The notes under the pieces: model-generated
What the model was told of the DNA's origin: nothing
What the model saw: only the letters and a program-made list of their open reading frames with translations
The model's database searches: none
Shown here: in pieces, positions 124 to 9,446 of the stretch
Layout of the letters: each line of letters opens with the position of its first letter
Position numbering within the stretch: the stretch's first letter is position 1
Position numbers and translations under genes: made by a program
Origin: Sinosporangium album
Lineage (GTDB): Bacteria; Actinomycetota; Actinomycetes; Streptosporangiales; Streptosporangiaceae
Length of the DNA: 64,000 nucleotides
NCBI RefSeq assembly: GCF_900100605.1
Contig: NZ_FNCN01000005.1
Location: forward strand, 100,828-164,827
Reading direction: 5' to 3'

Positions 124-1176
124 GTGAATCTCGACGAGCTGCTGACTGAACACACCGAGCTCGAACTCAAACTGGCCGATCCCGGCGTGCACGCCGACCA
201 GAACAAGGCCCGTTCCCTGGGGCGGCGCTACGCGGAGCTGACCCCGATCGTCGCCACCTATCGCGAGCTGTCGGGCGTCCGCGAGGACCTCGCGGCGGCC
301 AAGGAACTGGCCACCGAGGACCCCGCCTTCGCCGACGAGGCCGCAGAGCTCGCCGCGCGCATCCCCGTGCTCGAGGAGAAGCTGCGCCATCTGCTCATCC
401 CGCGCGATCCCAACGATGACAAGGACATCATCATGGAGATCAAGGCGGGTGAGGGCGGAGAGGAGTCGGCGCTGTTCGCCGGAGACCTGCTGCGCATGTA
501 TCTCCGCTACGCCGAGCGCATCGGCTGGAAGACCGAGGTCATCGACGCCCAGCACTCCGACCTCGGCGGCTACAAGGACGTGACGGTCGCGATCAAGGGC
601 AAGGGCGCCGACGGCGTGTGGGCCCGGCTCAAATACGAGGGCGGGGTGCACCGCGTGCAGCGCGTGCCCGTCACCGAGTCGCAGGGGCGCATCCACACCT
701 CGGCCGCGGGTGTGCTGGTCTACGCGGAGGCCGAGGAGGTCGACGTGCAGATCGACCCCAATGACCTGCGCATCGACGTCTTCCGCAGCTCCGGGCCCGG
801 TGGCCAGAGCGTCAACACCACCGACTCGGCGGTGCGGATCACCCACCTCCCGACCGGTGTGGTCGTCTCCTGCCAGAACGAGAAGAGCCAGCTCCAGAAC
901 AAGGAGTCCGCGCTGCGCATCCTGCGCGCCCGGCTCCTGTCCATCGCCCAGGAGGAGGCGCAGGCCGCCGCCGCCGCCGACCGCAAGTCCCAAGTGCGCA
1001 CGGTCGACCGCTCCGAGCGCATCCGCACCTACAACTTCCCTGAGAATCGCATCTCCGACCACCGCGTCGGCTTCAAGGCGTATAACCTCGATCAGGTCCT
1101 GGACGGCGACCTGTCCGCTGTCATCCAGGCATTGACCGATGCCGAGATGGCGGAGAAGCTCGCCGCCCATTCCTAG
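124..1176 (+). CDS. prfA: Peptide chain release factor 1
   Basis: Release factor that decodes UAA and UAG in the ribosomal A site and triggers hydrolysis of peptidyl-tRNA. The 350-residue length is normal for the family. The stop-codon-reading tripeptide is PVT at residues 182-184, the RF1 (not RF2) type, and the catalytic GGQ is at residues 226-228 within [10 protein letters not shown]. The GTG start follows a purine-rich GGGAGGGACGCAGG stretch. The gene precedes prmC, whose product methylates the Gln of GGQ; the two are separated by only seven bases and are probably co-transcribed. Identification is secure. Confidence 0.97.
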
Positions 1177-2767: not shown

Positions 2768-2780
2768 CACGGTTACCGTG
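2768..2780. promoter_or_regulatory. 13-bp palindrome upstream of the polyampholyte gene
   Basis: CACGGT-T-ACCGTG is a perfect inverted repeat 28 nt before the start codon at 2809, in a comparatively AT-rich stretch (2716-2800) after tsaC. It could be an operator in the promoter region of the cassette. No -35/-10 pair could be assigned with confidence. Confidence 0.3.
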
Positions 2781-2808
2781 AGGTTGGTCGATACTTCCGG
2801 GAGAGTCG

Positions 2809-5775
2809 ATGGGCAAGTTCAATGGAATGAATCCCCAGCTTGTCCGGGGACTGCTGGCCGAGGCGAAGAACATGGCCGGCCAGATCAGATCCATTGACAG
2901 CCGTGTCACCCAGCTGTTGAGCGCCGCGGGAGTCCCCTCGGGAACACCGGTCAGACCGGCGCAGGTCGCCGACAGCCTTGACGAGATGGTCCGCGATCTC
3001 ACCGTGAGAGTGGAGCTACTCGAAAAGCGCGAGGAGCAGCAGCAGATCGCCGACCCGCCCCGTGTCGAAGGCCAGTCCGTCGAGGCCACCCCGCGAGACC
3101 CCGGGGCTGACAACACGGACAAGGATCAGGACGACACGGACAAAGGCGCGGCCGAAGGCCCGAAGAACGCCACGGACGACAAGGCCAAAACGCCCGAAGG
3201 CGGGTCCGGCGGGGGAGACGCGCAGCGCCCCCAGGGCGGGGGAGACGCGAAGGGCGACCGCCCGGAGACCGGGGCGAAGGCCGACGGGGAGAGCGGCAAG
3301 CGAGGCGACGAGGCCAAGGGCGACCCCAAGGGGGACGCCAGGTCCGACAAGGAAGCCAAGACCGACCGGGACGCCGGTGTCGGCCGCGACGAGTCCAAGG
3401 ACACCGCTTCGGGCCGGGACGCGCGGGGCGACGGCGACGCCGCCAAGGACGGCAAGGATTCTGGTGGTCGTGACGAGTCCAAGGGTGAGGCCAAGGACGG
3501 TAAGGACGATCGCGGCGAGTCCAAGGGCGAGGCCAAGGACGGTAAGGACTCTGGCGGCCGTGACGAGTCCAAGGGCGAGGCCAAGGACGGTAAGGACTCT
3601 GGTGGTCGTGACGAGTCCAAGGGTGAGGCCAAGGACGGTAAGGACGATCGCGGCGAGTCCAAGGGCGAGGCCAAGGACGCCAAGGACGGTAAGGATTCTG
3701 GCGGTCGTGACGAGTCCAAGGGTGAACCCAAGGGCGATCGGGACTCCAAGGGCGAGCGCGACCGTGTGGGTGACCTCCGGGAAGTGCCCCAGGGGGATGA
3801 GGGTTCCAGGGACGACCGTGACGCGTCGGGCGGTCGCAATGACACCAGGAGTGCCTCTGCGGACGGTCGGCCCGTGGACGGCGGCGACTCCAAAGCCGGC
3901 CGGGATGATTCGGTCGGCGACCCCGCGAAGGACGGTGGCAAGGACTCCGGCGGTCGTGACGAGCCGCGAGGCGAGCCCAAGGGTGAGCGGGACGCCGGTG
4001 GCGATCGGCATGGCGAGGCCAAGGGCGACCGGGATTCCAAGGGTGAGCGGCTGAATGTGGGCGATGGCTCGCGAGGCGACGGCGGTGGCGACCTGCGGGA
4101 TGAGCCTCGGGACGATCGCGGTTCTCGCGATGAGCGGGACTCGGGCGGCGACTCCCGCGGGGAGCCCAAGGAAGACCGGGGCGCCAGGGGAGACAGAGAC
4201 CTCGACCAGCGACGCGATCAGGACGGCGCGCGAGATTCACGCGACTCTCGCGAGAGGTACGGCGACGGCCGGGACGACGTGGGCGCTCCCGAGCGCGACT
4301 CGCGGGGCCCGGGCGTCTCGGCGGCATCCGACGGGCAGGACCGCACGGAGGGTGCCTCACGTGACTCGGACGACCGCTCGGAAGGTAAGAGCAGGGAGTC
4401 GGACGACAGAGATCGGTCGGATCGGGGCAAGGACCCCGACGACAAGGACCGGTCGGACAGCCGGGGCAAGGACTCGCGGGACCGCGACGGCTCGGAGCCG
4501 CGTGGAAAGGACTCCGCCGATCGGGGCGGGTCCGACGGTAGGGGCGGGGATTCGCGCGGCCGTGACCCCGACGGCCAGAACCGGATGGACACTCCCGGTA
4601 AGGACCATCCCGATGACCGGGACACCAGTGGTGGCCGACGGGTCGTCGAAGTCGACGGCGTCAAGATAGTCGAACAGCCGATGGGGCCGCCGCCGACAAT
4701 GGACGAGATTCGCGACATGATGGCCAACGCGAAGCCGATGGAGACGCCGGTCGCCGAGGATCTCGTTCTCAGCGATTACGCGACGGATGCGAAGAACCCC
4801 TACTCCGCCGCTGATGGGCCTCCTGGCCGCATCGCCGGTACGCCCGACCCCGGGGTCAAGCCGGACTTCCCAATCCCGGACACGGCGGAGTACGCCGGTG
4901 ATCCGGGCGACTCGCGCGGTTCGGGCGGCCGTGACGACCGGCCTTCGGTGTCCGACGCGATGGACCGCTCGGGCCTCGGGGAGCGCGCATACGGCGGAGA
5001 TCGCGGGCTGGATGATGGCGTCCGCAGCCATGGCGATCGTCCGCAGGATCCCGATTACGGGGATAAATCGCGATCTGAGGGTGATGGGGACCGGGAAGGC
5101 AAAGGGGAGCGCTCACGGGATCCTGGACGTGATTCTGGAGGTGATGCGTGGGATCGTCGGGATGCTCGGGATGCCCAGGACACGGACTACCAGAATGACC
5201 GTCCTGAGAAAGACGATCCCGTCCGGGAGGACTCCGGCGGGGACGAGTGGGCGGGCGACGGCGAGCGGGACTCGAAGGGCGACCGTTCACGCGATCCCGG
5301 GCGTGAGCCTGAGGGTGATTCGCGAGATCGCCGGGATGATGCTCGGGGCGCGGGTTACGCAGGTTACGTGGACTATCGGGATGCGGACTATCGGGACGAT
5401 CGGATCGCCGGTGAGCGGCGGGATGACGACCGGTTCGAGGATCGTCGGCAGGACTCGGATCGATATCGCGACGATCGGGACCGGGGCGAGGAGTCCGAGA
5501 GGGGTTCCTCCAAGGACGGCGACCGGGACCGCGATGGGCGGGACCGGGACGACCGGGACCGCGGGGGTTCGGCCAAGGAGGACGGACGGGAGTCGAAAGG
5601 CGACCGGGCCAGGGAGCCGAGGGACGGGGTTCCCCGGCCGGGTGAATACGGTAATGACTGGCGCAAAGGTCCGGTGACGGAGCCGGTTTCCCCGCCGGCG
5701 CCGGACGGGCTCCGGCTGGCCTCGGACGGCATGGCCACGGTTGATCCACTGGACAGGCGCGGCGTCGAGAGGTAG
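2809..5775 (+). CDS. Unrecognised 988-residue repetitive polyampholyte protein
   Basis: Not recognised. Residues 1-85 look like a folded helical hairpin: a helix at about 7-37, a Pro/Gly turn, then a second helix at about 48-77 ending in RVELLEKREEQQQ. Residues 86-610 and 710-945 are low complexity, almost entirely Asp, Glu, Lys, Arg, Gly and Ser with interleaved charges. Between them, at about 609-707, lies a more ordinary segment (VVEVDGVKIVEQPMGPPP, then TMDEIRDMM). The C-terminus (about 946-988) is Pro-rich with little charge patterning. There is no signal peptide or membrane segment. The ATG follows GGGAGAG. The reading frame is intact for 3 kb with GC-rich third positions, so I take it as a real gene. 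It probably forms an operon with 5786-6160. The N-terminal hairpin vaguely resembles N-terminal modules of some actinobacterial type VII-linked proteins; that is inference only. Confidence 0.75.
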   Translation: MGKFNGMNPQLVRGLLAEAKNMAGQIRSIDSRVTQLLSAAGVPSGTPVRPAQVADSLDEMVRDLTVRVELLEKREEQQQIADPPRVEGQSVEATPRDPGADNTDKDQDDTDKGAAEGPKNATDDKAKTPEGGSGGGDAQRPQGGGDAKGDRPETGAKADGESGKRGDEAKGDPKGDARSDKEAKTDRDAGVGRDESKDTASGRDARGDGDAAKDGKDSGGRDESKGEAKDGKDDRGESKGEAKDGKDSGGRDESKGEAKDGKDSGGRDESKGEAKDGKDDRGESKGEAKDAKDGKDSGGRDESKGEPKGDRDSKGERDRVGDLREVPQGDEGSRDDRDASGGRNDTRSASADGRPVDGGDSKAGRDDSVGDPAKDGGKDSGGRDEPRGEPKGERDAGGDRHGEAKGDRDSKGERLNVGDGSRGDGGGDLRDEPRDDRGSRDERDSGGDSRGEPKEDRGARGDRDLDQRRDQDGARDSRDSRERYGDGRDDVGAPERDSRGPGVSAASDGQDRTEGASRDSDDRSEGKSRESDDRDRSDRGKDPDDKDRSDSRGKDSRDRDGSEPRGKDSADRGGSDGRGGDSRGRDPDGQNRMDTPGKDHPDDRDTSGGRRVVEVDGVKIVEQPMGPPPTMDEIRDMMANAKPMETPVAEDLVLSDYATDAKNPYSAADGPPGRIAGTPDPGVKPDFPIPDTAEYAGDPGDSRGSGGRDDRPSVSDAMDRSGLGERAYGGDRGLDDGVRSHGDRPQDPDYGDKSRSEGDGDREGKGERSRDPGRDSGGDAWDRRDARDAQDTDYQNDRPEKDDPVREDSGGDEWAGDGERDSKGDRSRDPGREPEGDSRDRRDDARGAGYAGYVDYRDADYRDDRIAGERRDDDRFEDRRQDSDRYRDDRDRGEESERGSSKDGDRDRDGRDRDDRDRGGSAKEDGRESKGDRAREPRDGVPRPGEYGNDWRKGPVTEPVSPPAPDGLRLASDGMATVDPLDRRGVER
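3445..3729 (+). repeat. 48/42-bp in-frame tandem repeat array
   Basis: Two related units alternate: a 48-bp unit encoding KDGKDSGGRDESKGEA (3445-3492, 3535-3582, 3583-3630, 3682-3729) and a 42-bp unit encoding KDGKDDRGESKGEA (3493-3534, 3631-3672), with a 9-bp KDA insertion before the last copy. The last copy ends in Pro in place of Ala. Copies are near-identical at the nucleotide level, which suggests recent expansion. Confidence 0.9.
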
Positions 5776-5785
5776 GGATTTTGCC

Positions 5786-6160
5786 ATGTATGTCGATCCT
5801 CCGGCGCCACTGCCACGGCAACCGGGTGAAGAGCCGCCGGGCATACGGCCGAACTCCGGTGCGACGGGGCCGAGAAACTGGCAGTTCAACCCGGAATACC
5901 AGAAGCTGGTCGTGCTGTGGTTTCAGGTGATGCCGCTGCTCGACACGCTGGCCGCGTCGCTGGACAAGGCCACGCAGGCGGCCAAGAGCAGCGATACGTG
6001 GGATGCGCCGGTCGGCGAGAGATATGTGAACGACATGGCCGAGTGGCGCAACAAGCTGCTGCGCTATCGCCAGTCCGTGCTCACGGCGATCAGCGACGAG
6101 GCGGCCGACACCCCGAGGTGGGTGCCGAGGGAGGTCAGTTCACCGCACGCTTTCTCCTGA
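5786..6160 (+). CDS. Small helical protein with WXG100-like pattern, unrecognised
   Basis: A 124-residue protein of unknown function. The first 30 residues are Pro/Gly-rich and probably disordered. They are followed by two predicted helices at about 36-68 and 76-106, separated by a turn containing Trp72 (SSDTWDAPVGERY). A helix-Trp-turn-helix layout of about 100 residues is the outline of WXG100 (ESAT-6-like) proteins, but the exact W-x-G tripeptide is absent. ATG 5786 has a good Shine-Dalgarno (GAGAGGTAGGGA) and lies 10 nt after the stop of the polyampholyte gene, so the two are likely co-expressed and perhaps partners. No type VII secretion machinery is in the window. Confidence 0.75.
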   Translation: MYVDPPAPLPRQPGEEPPGIRPNSGATGPRNWQFNPEYQKLVVLWFQVMPLLDTLAASLDKATQAAKSSDTWDAPVGERYVNDMAEWRNKLLRYRQSVLTAISDEAADTPRWVPREVSSPHAFS

Positions 6161-7631: not shown

Positions 7632-9446
7632 GTGCGCGAATACCTCTTGATAGCGCTGGCGGCGGCTGCGGTGACCTATCTGCTGGTCCCGCTGGTCCGC
7701 GTGTTCGCCATCCGCATCGGCGCGATGCCGGAGGTGCGCGATCGCGACGTGCACACCAAGCCCACGCCCCGCCTCGGCGGGCTCGCGATGTACGGCGGGT
7801 TGGTCGCCGGCCTGATCATGGCCGATCAGCTGAAACACAGCGGCACGGTGCTCGCCGACGACAGGGCGATGTGGGCTCTGATCTGCGCCGGCGGGCTGAT
7901 CGTGGTGACCGGGTTCCTCGACGACTGGTGGGGCATGGACGCCCTCATCAAGCTGGGGGGCCAGGTCGGCGCGGCGGGTCTGCTGGTCTGGTTCGGCCTG
8001 AGTCTGCCGTGGATTCCGGGCCCCAACGGCGACAGCTACACGCTCGACTCCACCCTGAGCACGGTGGTGACGATCCTGGTGGTCGTCGTGACCATCAACG
8101 CGGTCAACTTCGTCGACGGGCTGGACGGCCTGGCCGCGGGCATCGTCTGCATCGCGGGCATCGCCATGTGGGGCTACTCCATCGTGCTGTCGCAGGCGGT
8201 CTCCAACGGCACCCGCATCAACCTCACGGCCATCATCACGGCCATCCTCATCGGCATGTGCCTGGGGTTCCTTCCGCACAACTTCCATCCCGCCAAGATC
8301 TTCATGGGTGACACCGGGGCCATGCTGATCGGCCTCGTGCTCGCCTCCTCGATCGTCACCGTCACCCCGGTCGACCCCGCGGCCATCAACCGCTTCCCGA
8401 TCGTGCTGCCGCTGCTGCTGCCGATCGCGGTGATGCTGCTGCCGCTGCTCGATCTGACGTCGGCCGTGGTCAGACGCACGTCGTACGGCCAGTCCCCGTT
8501 CGCCCCCGACCGGGGGCACCTGCATCACCGGCTGCTGGACATCGGCCATTCGCACCGCCGCACGGTCCTGATCATGTATGCGTGGACCTTCCTGTTCGCG
8601 GCGGCCGTGGTCGGTCTGTCGGTCGGTGGTGTCCCGCTGATCGTGTTCCCGGTCACAGTCCTGCTGGCCGTCGGGGTGCTCGTGCTGATGGCGCTTCCGC
8701 GCTGGCGGCTGCGCCGCAAGAACGGCGGATCACATGCGATGGGGCATTCCCCCGAACCCGAGCGAGAACCCCGGGCCGCCGCGCGGGATGAGGCGCGGGA
8801 TGCCGCCTCCGGGGCCCTGGCGCCTCCGGCGCCGAGGTCGGGCGCCCGTCCGCGACCGGTGCCCCAGCCGATGGCGGCGCCCGTGTCCGAGCGGTTCACG
8901 CCCACCGAGGACTTGACGCAGCCAGCGAGGCGGCGTCCGCCGTCCGCGGGCCGTCTGCCGAGGAGCCGGGTCTACGAAGGCCCTCCGCCCCACACGGGGC
9001 AGATCGCCGCCGTGCCGAAGGCCCCGGGCCCGCAGGAGGGGCGGCCTGCCGCGCCGTCCGCCCCGGAGACCGGGCAGATCGCCGCGGTGCCGGGCCGCGC
9101 GGTCCCTCAGGGCAGGCCGGAGGACGGCGACGCCGGCGCGCCGCGGACCGCGGAGCATCGGGGAAGACCCGAGGGAAGCGCCGCCGACGTGCCGCGGGCC
9201 GCGGGGATGCGAGGCCGACCGGCCGAGGATTCGCTCGGCGTGCCGCGGGCTGCCGACGGTCACGGAAGGCGTTCGGTGCCCCAGCCGCACAGCGGTGACA
9301 CGACGGGGCCCGTGCCGAAAGTGATGCCGACCACAGATTCCACCGATCACGGTTCGAACGCGGACTCCGTGGAACTTATCGATGACACGGCAGTCTTCCC
9401 TGCTTATCGGGATTCGCGCTCGACTCCGCCCCGGCGTATCCCCTGA
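7632..9446 (+). CDS. wecA: Undecaprenyl-phosphate GlcNAc-1-phosphate transferase, WecA/TagO type, with long C-terminal tail
   Basis: Polytopic membrane enzyme of the MraY/WecA family, which transfers a sugar 1-phosphate from a UDP-sugar to undecaprenyl phosphate. In actinobacteria this step starts synthesis of arabinogalactan-like or teichoic polymers. Family motifs include KPTPRLGGLAMY near residue 36, NFVDGLDGLAAG near 157, FMGDTGAMLIG near 227 and the DRGHLHHRLLDIGHSHR loop near 294. The membrane part ends at about residue 355. Residues 356-604 form a Pro/Arg/Gly/Ala-rich, probably disordered cytoplasmic tail containing two TGQIAAVP copies and several PRAA..GRP elements. The start is GTG. 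The gene lies between glyA and the atp genes, as in other actinobacteria. The exact sugar is not determinable. Confidence 0.9.
   Translation: MREYLLIALAAAAVTYLLVPLVRVFAIRIGAMPEVRDRDVHTKPTPRLGGLAMYGGLVAGLIMADQLKHSGTVLADDRAMWALICAGGLIVVTGFLDDWWGMDALIKLGGQVGAAGLLVWFGLSLPWIPGPNGDSYTLDSTLSTVVTILVVVVTINAVNFVDGLDGLAAGIVCIAGIAMWGYSIVLSQAVSNGTRINLTAIITAILIGMCLGFLPHNFHPAKIFMGDTGAMLIGLVLASSIVTVTPVDPAAINRFPIVLPLLLPIAVMLLPLLDLTSAVVRRTSYGQSPFAPDRGHLHHRLLDIGHSHRRTVLIMYAWTFLFAAAVVGLSVGGVPLIVFPVTVLLAVGVLVLMALPRWRLRRKNGGSHAMGHSPEPEREPRAAARDEARDAASGALAPPAPRSGARPRPVPQPMAAPVSERFTPTEDLTQPARRRPPSAGRLPRSRVYEGPPPHTGQIAAVPKAPGPQEGRPAAPSAPETGQIAAVPGRAVPQGRPEDGDAGAPRTAEHRGRPEGSAADVPRAAGMRGRPAEDSLGVPRAADGHGRRSVPQPHSGDTTGPVPKVMPTTDSTDHGSNADSVELIDDTAVFPAYRDSRSTPPRRIP

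What the first reader, a model, noticed from the sequence alone, without database searches (positions are those of the whole stretch)
2809..6160. Unrecognised two-gene cassette: giant polyampholyte plus small WXG-like partner inside the prfA-atp block
Two adjacent plus-strand genes sit between tsaC and glyA, where actinobacteria normally have only conserved genes. The first encodes 988 residues dominated by alternating D/E and K/R with Gly and Ser; the second a small helical protein with a Trp at the turn. Composition and layout are directly visible. A role as a disordered surface, condensate-forming or stress-protective protein is inference.
Basis: partly seen in the sequence, partly recalled or inferred. 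Interest (0 to 1): 0.62.

Follow-up and report, generated by a model that had tools for sequence, protein, structure and literature searches.

The report
WXG100-like pair with disordered charged tail
Two neighbouring genes, kept together at the same chromosomal spot in more than a hundred species of one family of filamentous soil bacteria, encode a small hairpin protein and a large partner with a floppy, highly charged tail, and both descend from a kind of protein pair that is normally exported by type VII secretion; their actual job is untested.

Summary
Two intact plus-strand genes, A (2809-5775, 988 aa) and B (5786-6160, 124 aa), lie 10 nt apart between tsaC and glyA. Residues 86-608 of A are 51% charged, with charge alternation far above shuffled sequence. 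The pair is a clade-specific family: B occurs in 116 public genomes (the 80 listed are all Streptosporangiaceae), A accompanies B wherever upstream DNA is held (71/71), and the order tsaC-A-B-glyA is constant (56/56). No Pfam or NCBIfam model matches. The 'giant polyampholyte' is an extreme: of 85 A tails the window's is the most charged. What is conserved is an N-terminal hairpin (~80 aa), a net-acidic, charge-mixed, presumably disordered tail, and usually 1-5 copies of a 65-aa module, of which window residues 609-690 are probably a decayed copy. Profile bridges tie B to WTG/WVG-bearing WXG100-like proteins that sit beside large effector-like proteins with an A-like N-terminus, some next to EccC-type ATPases. 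B keeps the invariant Trp but has lost the glycine (WDA) and lacks YxxxD/E. I read it as a WXG100-derived heterodimer with a disordered tail, probably exported by a type VII-like machine; a cytoplasmic scaffold is the main rival. New variant of a known kind.

The parts
2774..2779 (+). Promoter-like TACCGT (TAnnnT), 35 nt before the A start, conserved near this place in most relatives; function inferred
   Evidence: Upstream sequences of 29 loci
2799..2805 (+). GGGAGAG, probable ribosome-binding site of A
2809..5775 (+). Gene A, 988 aa
   Evidence: N-terminal homologues in 127 of 297 family genomes
2809..3051 (+). A N-terminal domain (residues 1-81): helices 9-40 and 50-81; 16 invariant columns across 29 genomes (M1 G6 M7 P9 V12 R13 L16 A40 G41 P50 A54 D63 R67 L71 E72 K73)
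   Evidence: homologous to the GIDP hairpin of A' proteins (hhalign probability 94.6%, E 6.7e-8)
3064..4632 (+). Polyampholyte tail I (residues 86-608), 51% charged, presumably disordered
3442..3747 (+). Tandem repeats (units of 48, 90 and 99 bp in overlapping readings)
4633..4878 (+). Residues 609-690: probable decayed copy of the family's conserved 65-aa C-terminal module
   Evidence: Local alignment to the modules of L077 and L079 beats 500/500 shuffles (other modules weaker); intermediate copies in G087 (L192); not found by the module HMM
4930..5772 (+). Polyampholyte tail II, with a C-terminus (GLRLASDG...DRRGVER) shared with Sinosporangium siamense
5786..6160 (+). Gene B, 124 aa: N-terminal DPPAP...P motif, helix 36-67, W72-D-A-P, helix 74-107, C-terminal TPRWVP and PHAFS
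   Evidence: 23 invariant columns in 30 sequences

Best explanation
A and B are a WXG100-derived heterodimer. The N-terminal hairpin of A (~80 aa) pairs with the hairpin of B to give a four-helix bundle, as PE-PPE, EsxA-EsxB and LXG-Lap pairs do. B acts as the dedicated partner or targeting subunit. The bundle is recognised by a type VII-like FtsK/SpoIIIE ATPase encoded elsewhere in the genome, most likely the ~1,500-1,700-aa EccC-like ATPase with a lone WXG100 gene nearby that occurs in every AB-positive genome tested, and A is exported. Outside, the net-acidic, charge-mixed tail is a long soluble spacer, and the conserved C-terminal modules bind something in the envelope. Shown here: conserved pair, synteny, homology chain to WXG100-like proteins, co-occurrence. 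Inferred: heterodimer, export, spacer and ligand roles.
For: Pair: A in 71/71 B loci with enough upstream DNA, order tsaC-A-B-glyA in 56/56. Homology: B profile vs WTG/WVG-bearing B' proteins, hhalign 97.4%, E 1.2e-11; the B' profile finds the window's own B in its whole genome at E 5.5e-8; B' vs genomic WXG100 proteins 75.5%; one B' matches Pfam WXG100 weakly, E 0.0029; the B' profile hits a true Pfam WXG100 member (L097, PF06013 E 1.2e-13) at E 9e-5. A N-domain vs A' hairpins 94.6%. B' genes lie beside A'-type proteins in L075, L082, L184-L187 and L189-L191, and B'- or A'-like genes lie near EccC-like ATPases in L081, L227, L228. Both models are two-helix hairpins; WXG100/ESX structures are frequent among the best matches of the A N-domain, though not significant. 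EccC-like ATPase of the large type in 27/27 AB+ and 6/13 AB- genomes, while canonical EccC over the cut-off shows no link, 13/27 vs 6/13. The tail is net negative in 82/85 and its charges alternate more than shuffled (z>2) in 71/85.
Against: B has lost the glycine of WXG (W invariant, WDA in nearly all) and neither protein has YxxxD/E after its second helix. No secretion gene lies at the locus. The ATPase co-occurrence lies within one clade, so the counts are not independent. Fold matches are not significant (Foldseek E > 0.7; VIA Z at most 8.3, in the range expected for any helical hairpin). The co-divergence test was not specific: A-B partial r 0.38, but B-tsaC 0.41. Tail length and composition vary three- to four-fold.
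Confidence: 0.5

Rival explanations
1. Domesticated, cytoplasmic pair. The hairpins still dimerise but the complex is no longer exported; A works inside the hypha as a flexible scaffold, recruiting clients through its repeated modules (possibly as a condensate or a regulator of the secretion ATPase).
For: Loss of the WXG glycine in all B proteins and no YxxxD/E; no secretion gene nearby; fixed place among housekeeping genes; no signal peptide or membrane segment evident in the sequences.
Against: The relatives of both genes are effector-like pairs, some beside EccC-type ATPases; every AB+ genome tested keeps such an ATPase.
Confidence: 0.33
2. Polymorphic antagonistic effector: A is a toxin and B its partner or immunity protein.
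For: A' relatives are large, effector-like two-gene units.
Against: No folded C-terminal domain or catalytic family in A; the tail is low-complexity in all 85; vertical, syntenic inheritance, nearly always one copy per genome, instead of a mobile, variable repertoire; no third (immunity) gene.
Confidence: 0.06
3. Envelope or spore-coat matrix protein reaching the surface by another route, with the hairpin only anchoring B.
For: The clade includes many sporangium formers (general knowledge); hydrophilic, repeat-rich tail.
Against: No Sec/Tat signal, sortase or wall-binding motif seen; does not explain the WXG100 ancestry.
Confidence: 0.1
4. Artefact: a non-coding G+C-rich repeat that stays open by chance.
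For: Long antisense ORFs overlap A, as usual in G+C-rich repeats.
Against: Codon-position G+C, conserved N-terminus and module across 25 genera, open frames without stops in relatives.
Confidence: 0.01

Closest known systems
WXG100 superfamily (EsxA/EsxB, CFP-10/ESAT-6)
   Same: Small helical hairpin with Trp at the turn, adjacent pair of genes, profile link through B' proteins
   Different: B carries WDA instead of WXG, lacks YxxxD/E, has conserved Pro-rich N-terminal and C-terminal extensions; below every curated cut-off; partner is a 326-1191-aa protein with a disordered tail
LXG effectors with Lap partners (T7SSb)
   Same: Large protein with N-terminal helical targeting domain plus small adjacent WXG100-related partner (Laps may lack WXG; PMC11217815)
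   Different: Hairpin of ~80 aa, not an LXG domain of ~190 aa; no toxin domain or immunity gene; constant housekeeping locus
PE-PPE pairs and EspB (T7SSa)
   Same: Hairpin heterodimers; EspB has a low-complexity, disordered C-terminal domain (PMC10140165)
   Different: No PE/PPE motif, no EspG gene seen nearby, different sequence; much longer tail
A'/B' cassettes including DUF6571 proteins (PF20211)
   Same: Homologous hairpin in A', homologous small partner B' next door
   Different: A' has a long non-low-complexity C-terminal part; B' keeps WTG/WVG; scattered loci

Membership tests
WXG100 superfamily (B) | Two-helix hairpin of about 100 residues | tested here: met
   AlphaFold model, helices 36-67 and 74-107
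WXG100 superfamily (B) | Trp-X-Gly at the turn | tested here: not met
   W72 invariant in 30/30, but the motif is W(D/N)A, never WXG; homologous B' proteins have WTG/WVG
WXG100 superfamily (B) | Match to PF06013 / TIGR03930 above cut-off | tested here: not met
   WXG100 is not listed in Pfam for any of the 30 B proteins, and the window B matches nothing in NCBIfam
WXG100 superfamily (B) | Homology to WXG100 proteins | tested here: met
   By intermediate B' family: 97.4% to B' and 75.5% B' to WXG100; direct B to WXG100 only 18.9%
Type VII substrate (T7SSa signal) | YxxxD/E after helix 2 of one partner | tested here: not met
   Read from the alignments of B and of the A N-domain; signal as defined in PMC3935865
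Type VII substrate | Export dependent on EccC/EssC ATPase | not testable with these tools
   Only co-occurrence (27/27 AB+ genomes) could be tested
LXG effector with Lap | N-terminal LXG domain of ~190 aa and C-terminal toxin domain | tested here: not met
   Conserved N-domain is ~80 aa and no Pfam domain follows
WXG100-type hairpin (A N-domain) | Hairpin fold with significant similarity to ESX structures | tested here: inconclusive
   About a third of the best 50 VIA rows are WXG100/ESX entries, Z 6.5-7.6, tied with unrelated hairpins; Foldseek E about 1
DUF6571 (PF20211) | Pfam match | tested here: not met
   A has no match; some A' proteins do

The most novel reading that the evidence does not exclude
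A clade-wide, vertically inherited type VII-type pair has replaced its effector domain by an evolvable, charge-mixed disordered tail with repeated binding modules, and serves as a housekeeping envelope or developmental component of these filamentous actinomycetes, exported by an actinobacterial EccC-like machine that is neither T7SSa nor T7SSb.
Probability: 0.25. Interest if true: 0.75.

Novelty: new variant of a known kind. Interest (0 to 1): 0.52.

Why it matters
It is a conserved but, as far as I could find, undescribed gene pair in a clade of filamentous actinomycetes (Nonomuraea, Streptosporangium, Microbispora and others) that links WXG100 biology to long disordered tails and to an orphan EccC-like ATPase. 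If exported, it would be a non-toxin, core-genome substrate for a type VII-like machine outside mycobacteria; if not, it would show a secretion pair turned into a cytoplasmic scaffold. Either way the question is directly testable in cultivable strains.

Tried and rejected
Pfam and NCBIfam with whole proteins and segments: nothing (weak hits such as MS_N or Syntaxin are coiled-coil noise). Solved-structure sequences: only chance matches; the VopV hit is a sum of many weak repeats. Foldseek and VIA: compatible with WXG100 but not significant. The module HMM does not find window 609-707; only pairwise alignment and an intermediate sequence do. Co-divergence of A and B is not specific to the pair. 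G162's match to the A N-domain looks like a chance hit on an unrelated ORF. Toxin-immunity and mobile-cassette readings rejected for lack of a catalytic domain, third gene or mobility. No held paper names DUF6571, and none found describes this pair, but the literature searches were few.

Full report
What is there. Two plus-strand genes lie between tsaC (2050-2715) and glyA (ends 7567): A, 2809-5775, 988 aa, and B, 5786-6160, 124 aa, 10 nt apart. Codon-position G+C supports the A frame. After the first ~85 residues A is a tail that is 51% charged in residues 86-608 and has no Cys, with tandem repeats at 3442-3747.

Conservation. The A N-domain is found in 127 of 297 genomes of the window's family, in 25 of 68 genera. 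The B profile finds only that family in 394 genomes of the class, and the A profile finds only the window's genome plus three weak hits in 296 genomes of the phylum. In public named genomes B occurs in 116; the 80 listed are all Streptosporangiaceae (Nonomuraea, Streptosporangium, Microbispora, Planobispora, Planomonospora, Planotetraspora, Sphaerisporangium, Microtetraspora, Acrocarpospora, Spongiactinospora and others). A accompanies B in 71 of 71 loci with enough upstream DNA; the other nine are cut by contig ends. All 56 loci that hold all four genes show tsaC-A-B-glyA on one strand. In 15 of 21 relatives without the pair, tsaC is followed within 1.5 kb by a WecA-like gene, and no glyA is seen there; the pair therefore entered, or arose at, this place in the ancestor of one clade (inference).

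Anatomy of A. Across 29 genomes the N-domain has 16 invariant columns and a predicted two-helix hairpin, 9-40 and 50-81. Whole A proteins are 326-1191 aa long. Their tails are 14-49% charged and net negative in 82 of 85; charges alternate more than shuffled in 71 of 85 (z > 2; repeats and relatedness inflate this). The window is the most charged of the 85. Eighty of 85 carry 1-5 copies of a module with consensus VSVPLDPPTAEALRTLLDNARDIQPMDMPSVEVPEGEWGEGEWAPGDIEPDGPPGSVEPGEPT. The window is one of five without a detectable copy. Its segment 609-690 aligns to some modules better than 500 of 500 shuffles (two modules; weaker or not for others), and the A of G087 has copies that look intermediate between the two. 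I take 609-690 as a probable decayed copy.

Anatomy of B. 23 columns are invariant in 30 sequences, W72 among them; the residues after it read D-A (once N-A) where WXG100 has X-G. Helices are 36-67 and 74-107. The N-terminal DPPAP...P and C-terminal TPRWVP and PHAFS motifs are strongly conserved, hence likely contact sites (inference).

Ancestry. Weak hits of B led to paralogous cassettes elsewhere in these genomes: a ~100-aa B' with WTG or WVG beside a large A' that begins with a GIDP hairpin (L075, L082, L184-L187, L189-L191). B to B' scores 97.4%, A N-domain to A' 94.6%, B' to genomic WXG100 proteins 75.5%; direct B to WXG100 only 18.9%. The B' profile recovers the window's B at E 5.5e-8 in its own genome. 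B'- or A'-like genes lie near EccC-like ATPases in L081, L227 and L228. Some A' proteins match DUF6571.

Machine. All 27 AB+ genomes tested carry a large EccC-like ATPase (about 1,500-1,700 aa in most) scoring below the T7SSa cut-off; 6 of 13 AB- genomes do (Fisher p 9e-5, not corrected for kinship). Canonical EccC over the cut-off is in 13 of 27 and 6 of 13. In L097, L098, L100, L101, L102 and L227 this ATPase has a single WXG100 gene nearby. T7SS variants with FHA-bearing ATPases, and small WXG100-related partners beside substrates, are described in PMC11217815; that paper does not mention Streptosporangiaceae.

Mechanism. Shown: pair, locus, homology chain, co-occurrence. Inferred: heterodimer, export and outside role. 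Arguments against export are real: no WXG glycine, no YxxxD/E (definition from PMC3935865), no machine at the locus. A cytoplasmic, domesticated scaffold is therefore kept at 0.33. EspB offers a precedent for a type VII protein with a disordered tail (PMC10140165). A co-divergence test between A and B was inconclusive.

Verdict. By the rule of the test, B is not filed as a WXG100 member, because the motif and the curated cut-offs are not met; it is a WXG100-derived relative that probably still works as a hairpin partner. Novelty: new variant of a known kind. Interest 0.52.

Noticed in passing
L097 11958-16661 (G000:C6); also L098, L100, L101, L102, L227: A large EccC-like FtsK/SpoIIIE ATPase (about 1,500-1,700 aa) below the T7SSa cut-off, with an N-terminal stretch that by eye resembles a ubiquitin-like plus FHA arrangement, a lone WXG100 gene nearby, and tad-pilus and biotin-carboxylase genes around; it may be an undescribed actinobacterial type VII variant.
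   Followed up: partly
L075, L082, L184, L185, L186, L187, L189, L190, L191: Recurrent two-gene cassettes of a GIDP-hairpin protein (some DUF6571) plus a WTG/WVG small protein; likely type VII-type effector pairs of unknown activity.
   Followed up: partly
L227 11276-11737: A B'-like gene beside the EccC-like ATPase of a Planotetraspora genome has a stop at the place of the WXG tryptophan; pseudogene or sequencing error.
   Followed up: no
L203 / L214 (G162): Tandem duplication of tsaC.
   Followed up: no
window 7632-9446: WecA-like gene whose product ends in a Pro/Arg/Ala-rich, probably disordered tail of over 200 residues.
   Followed up: no
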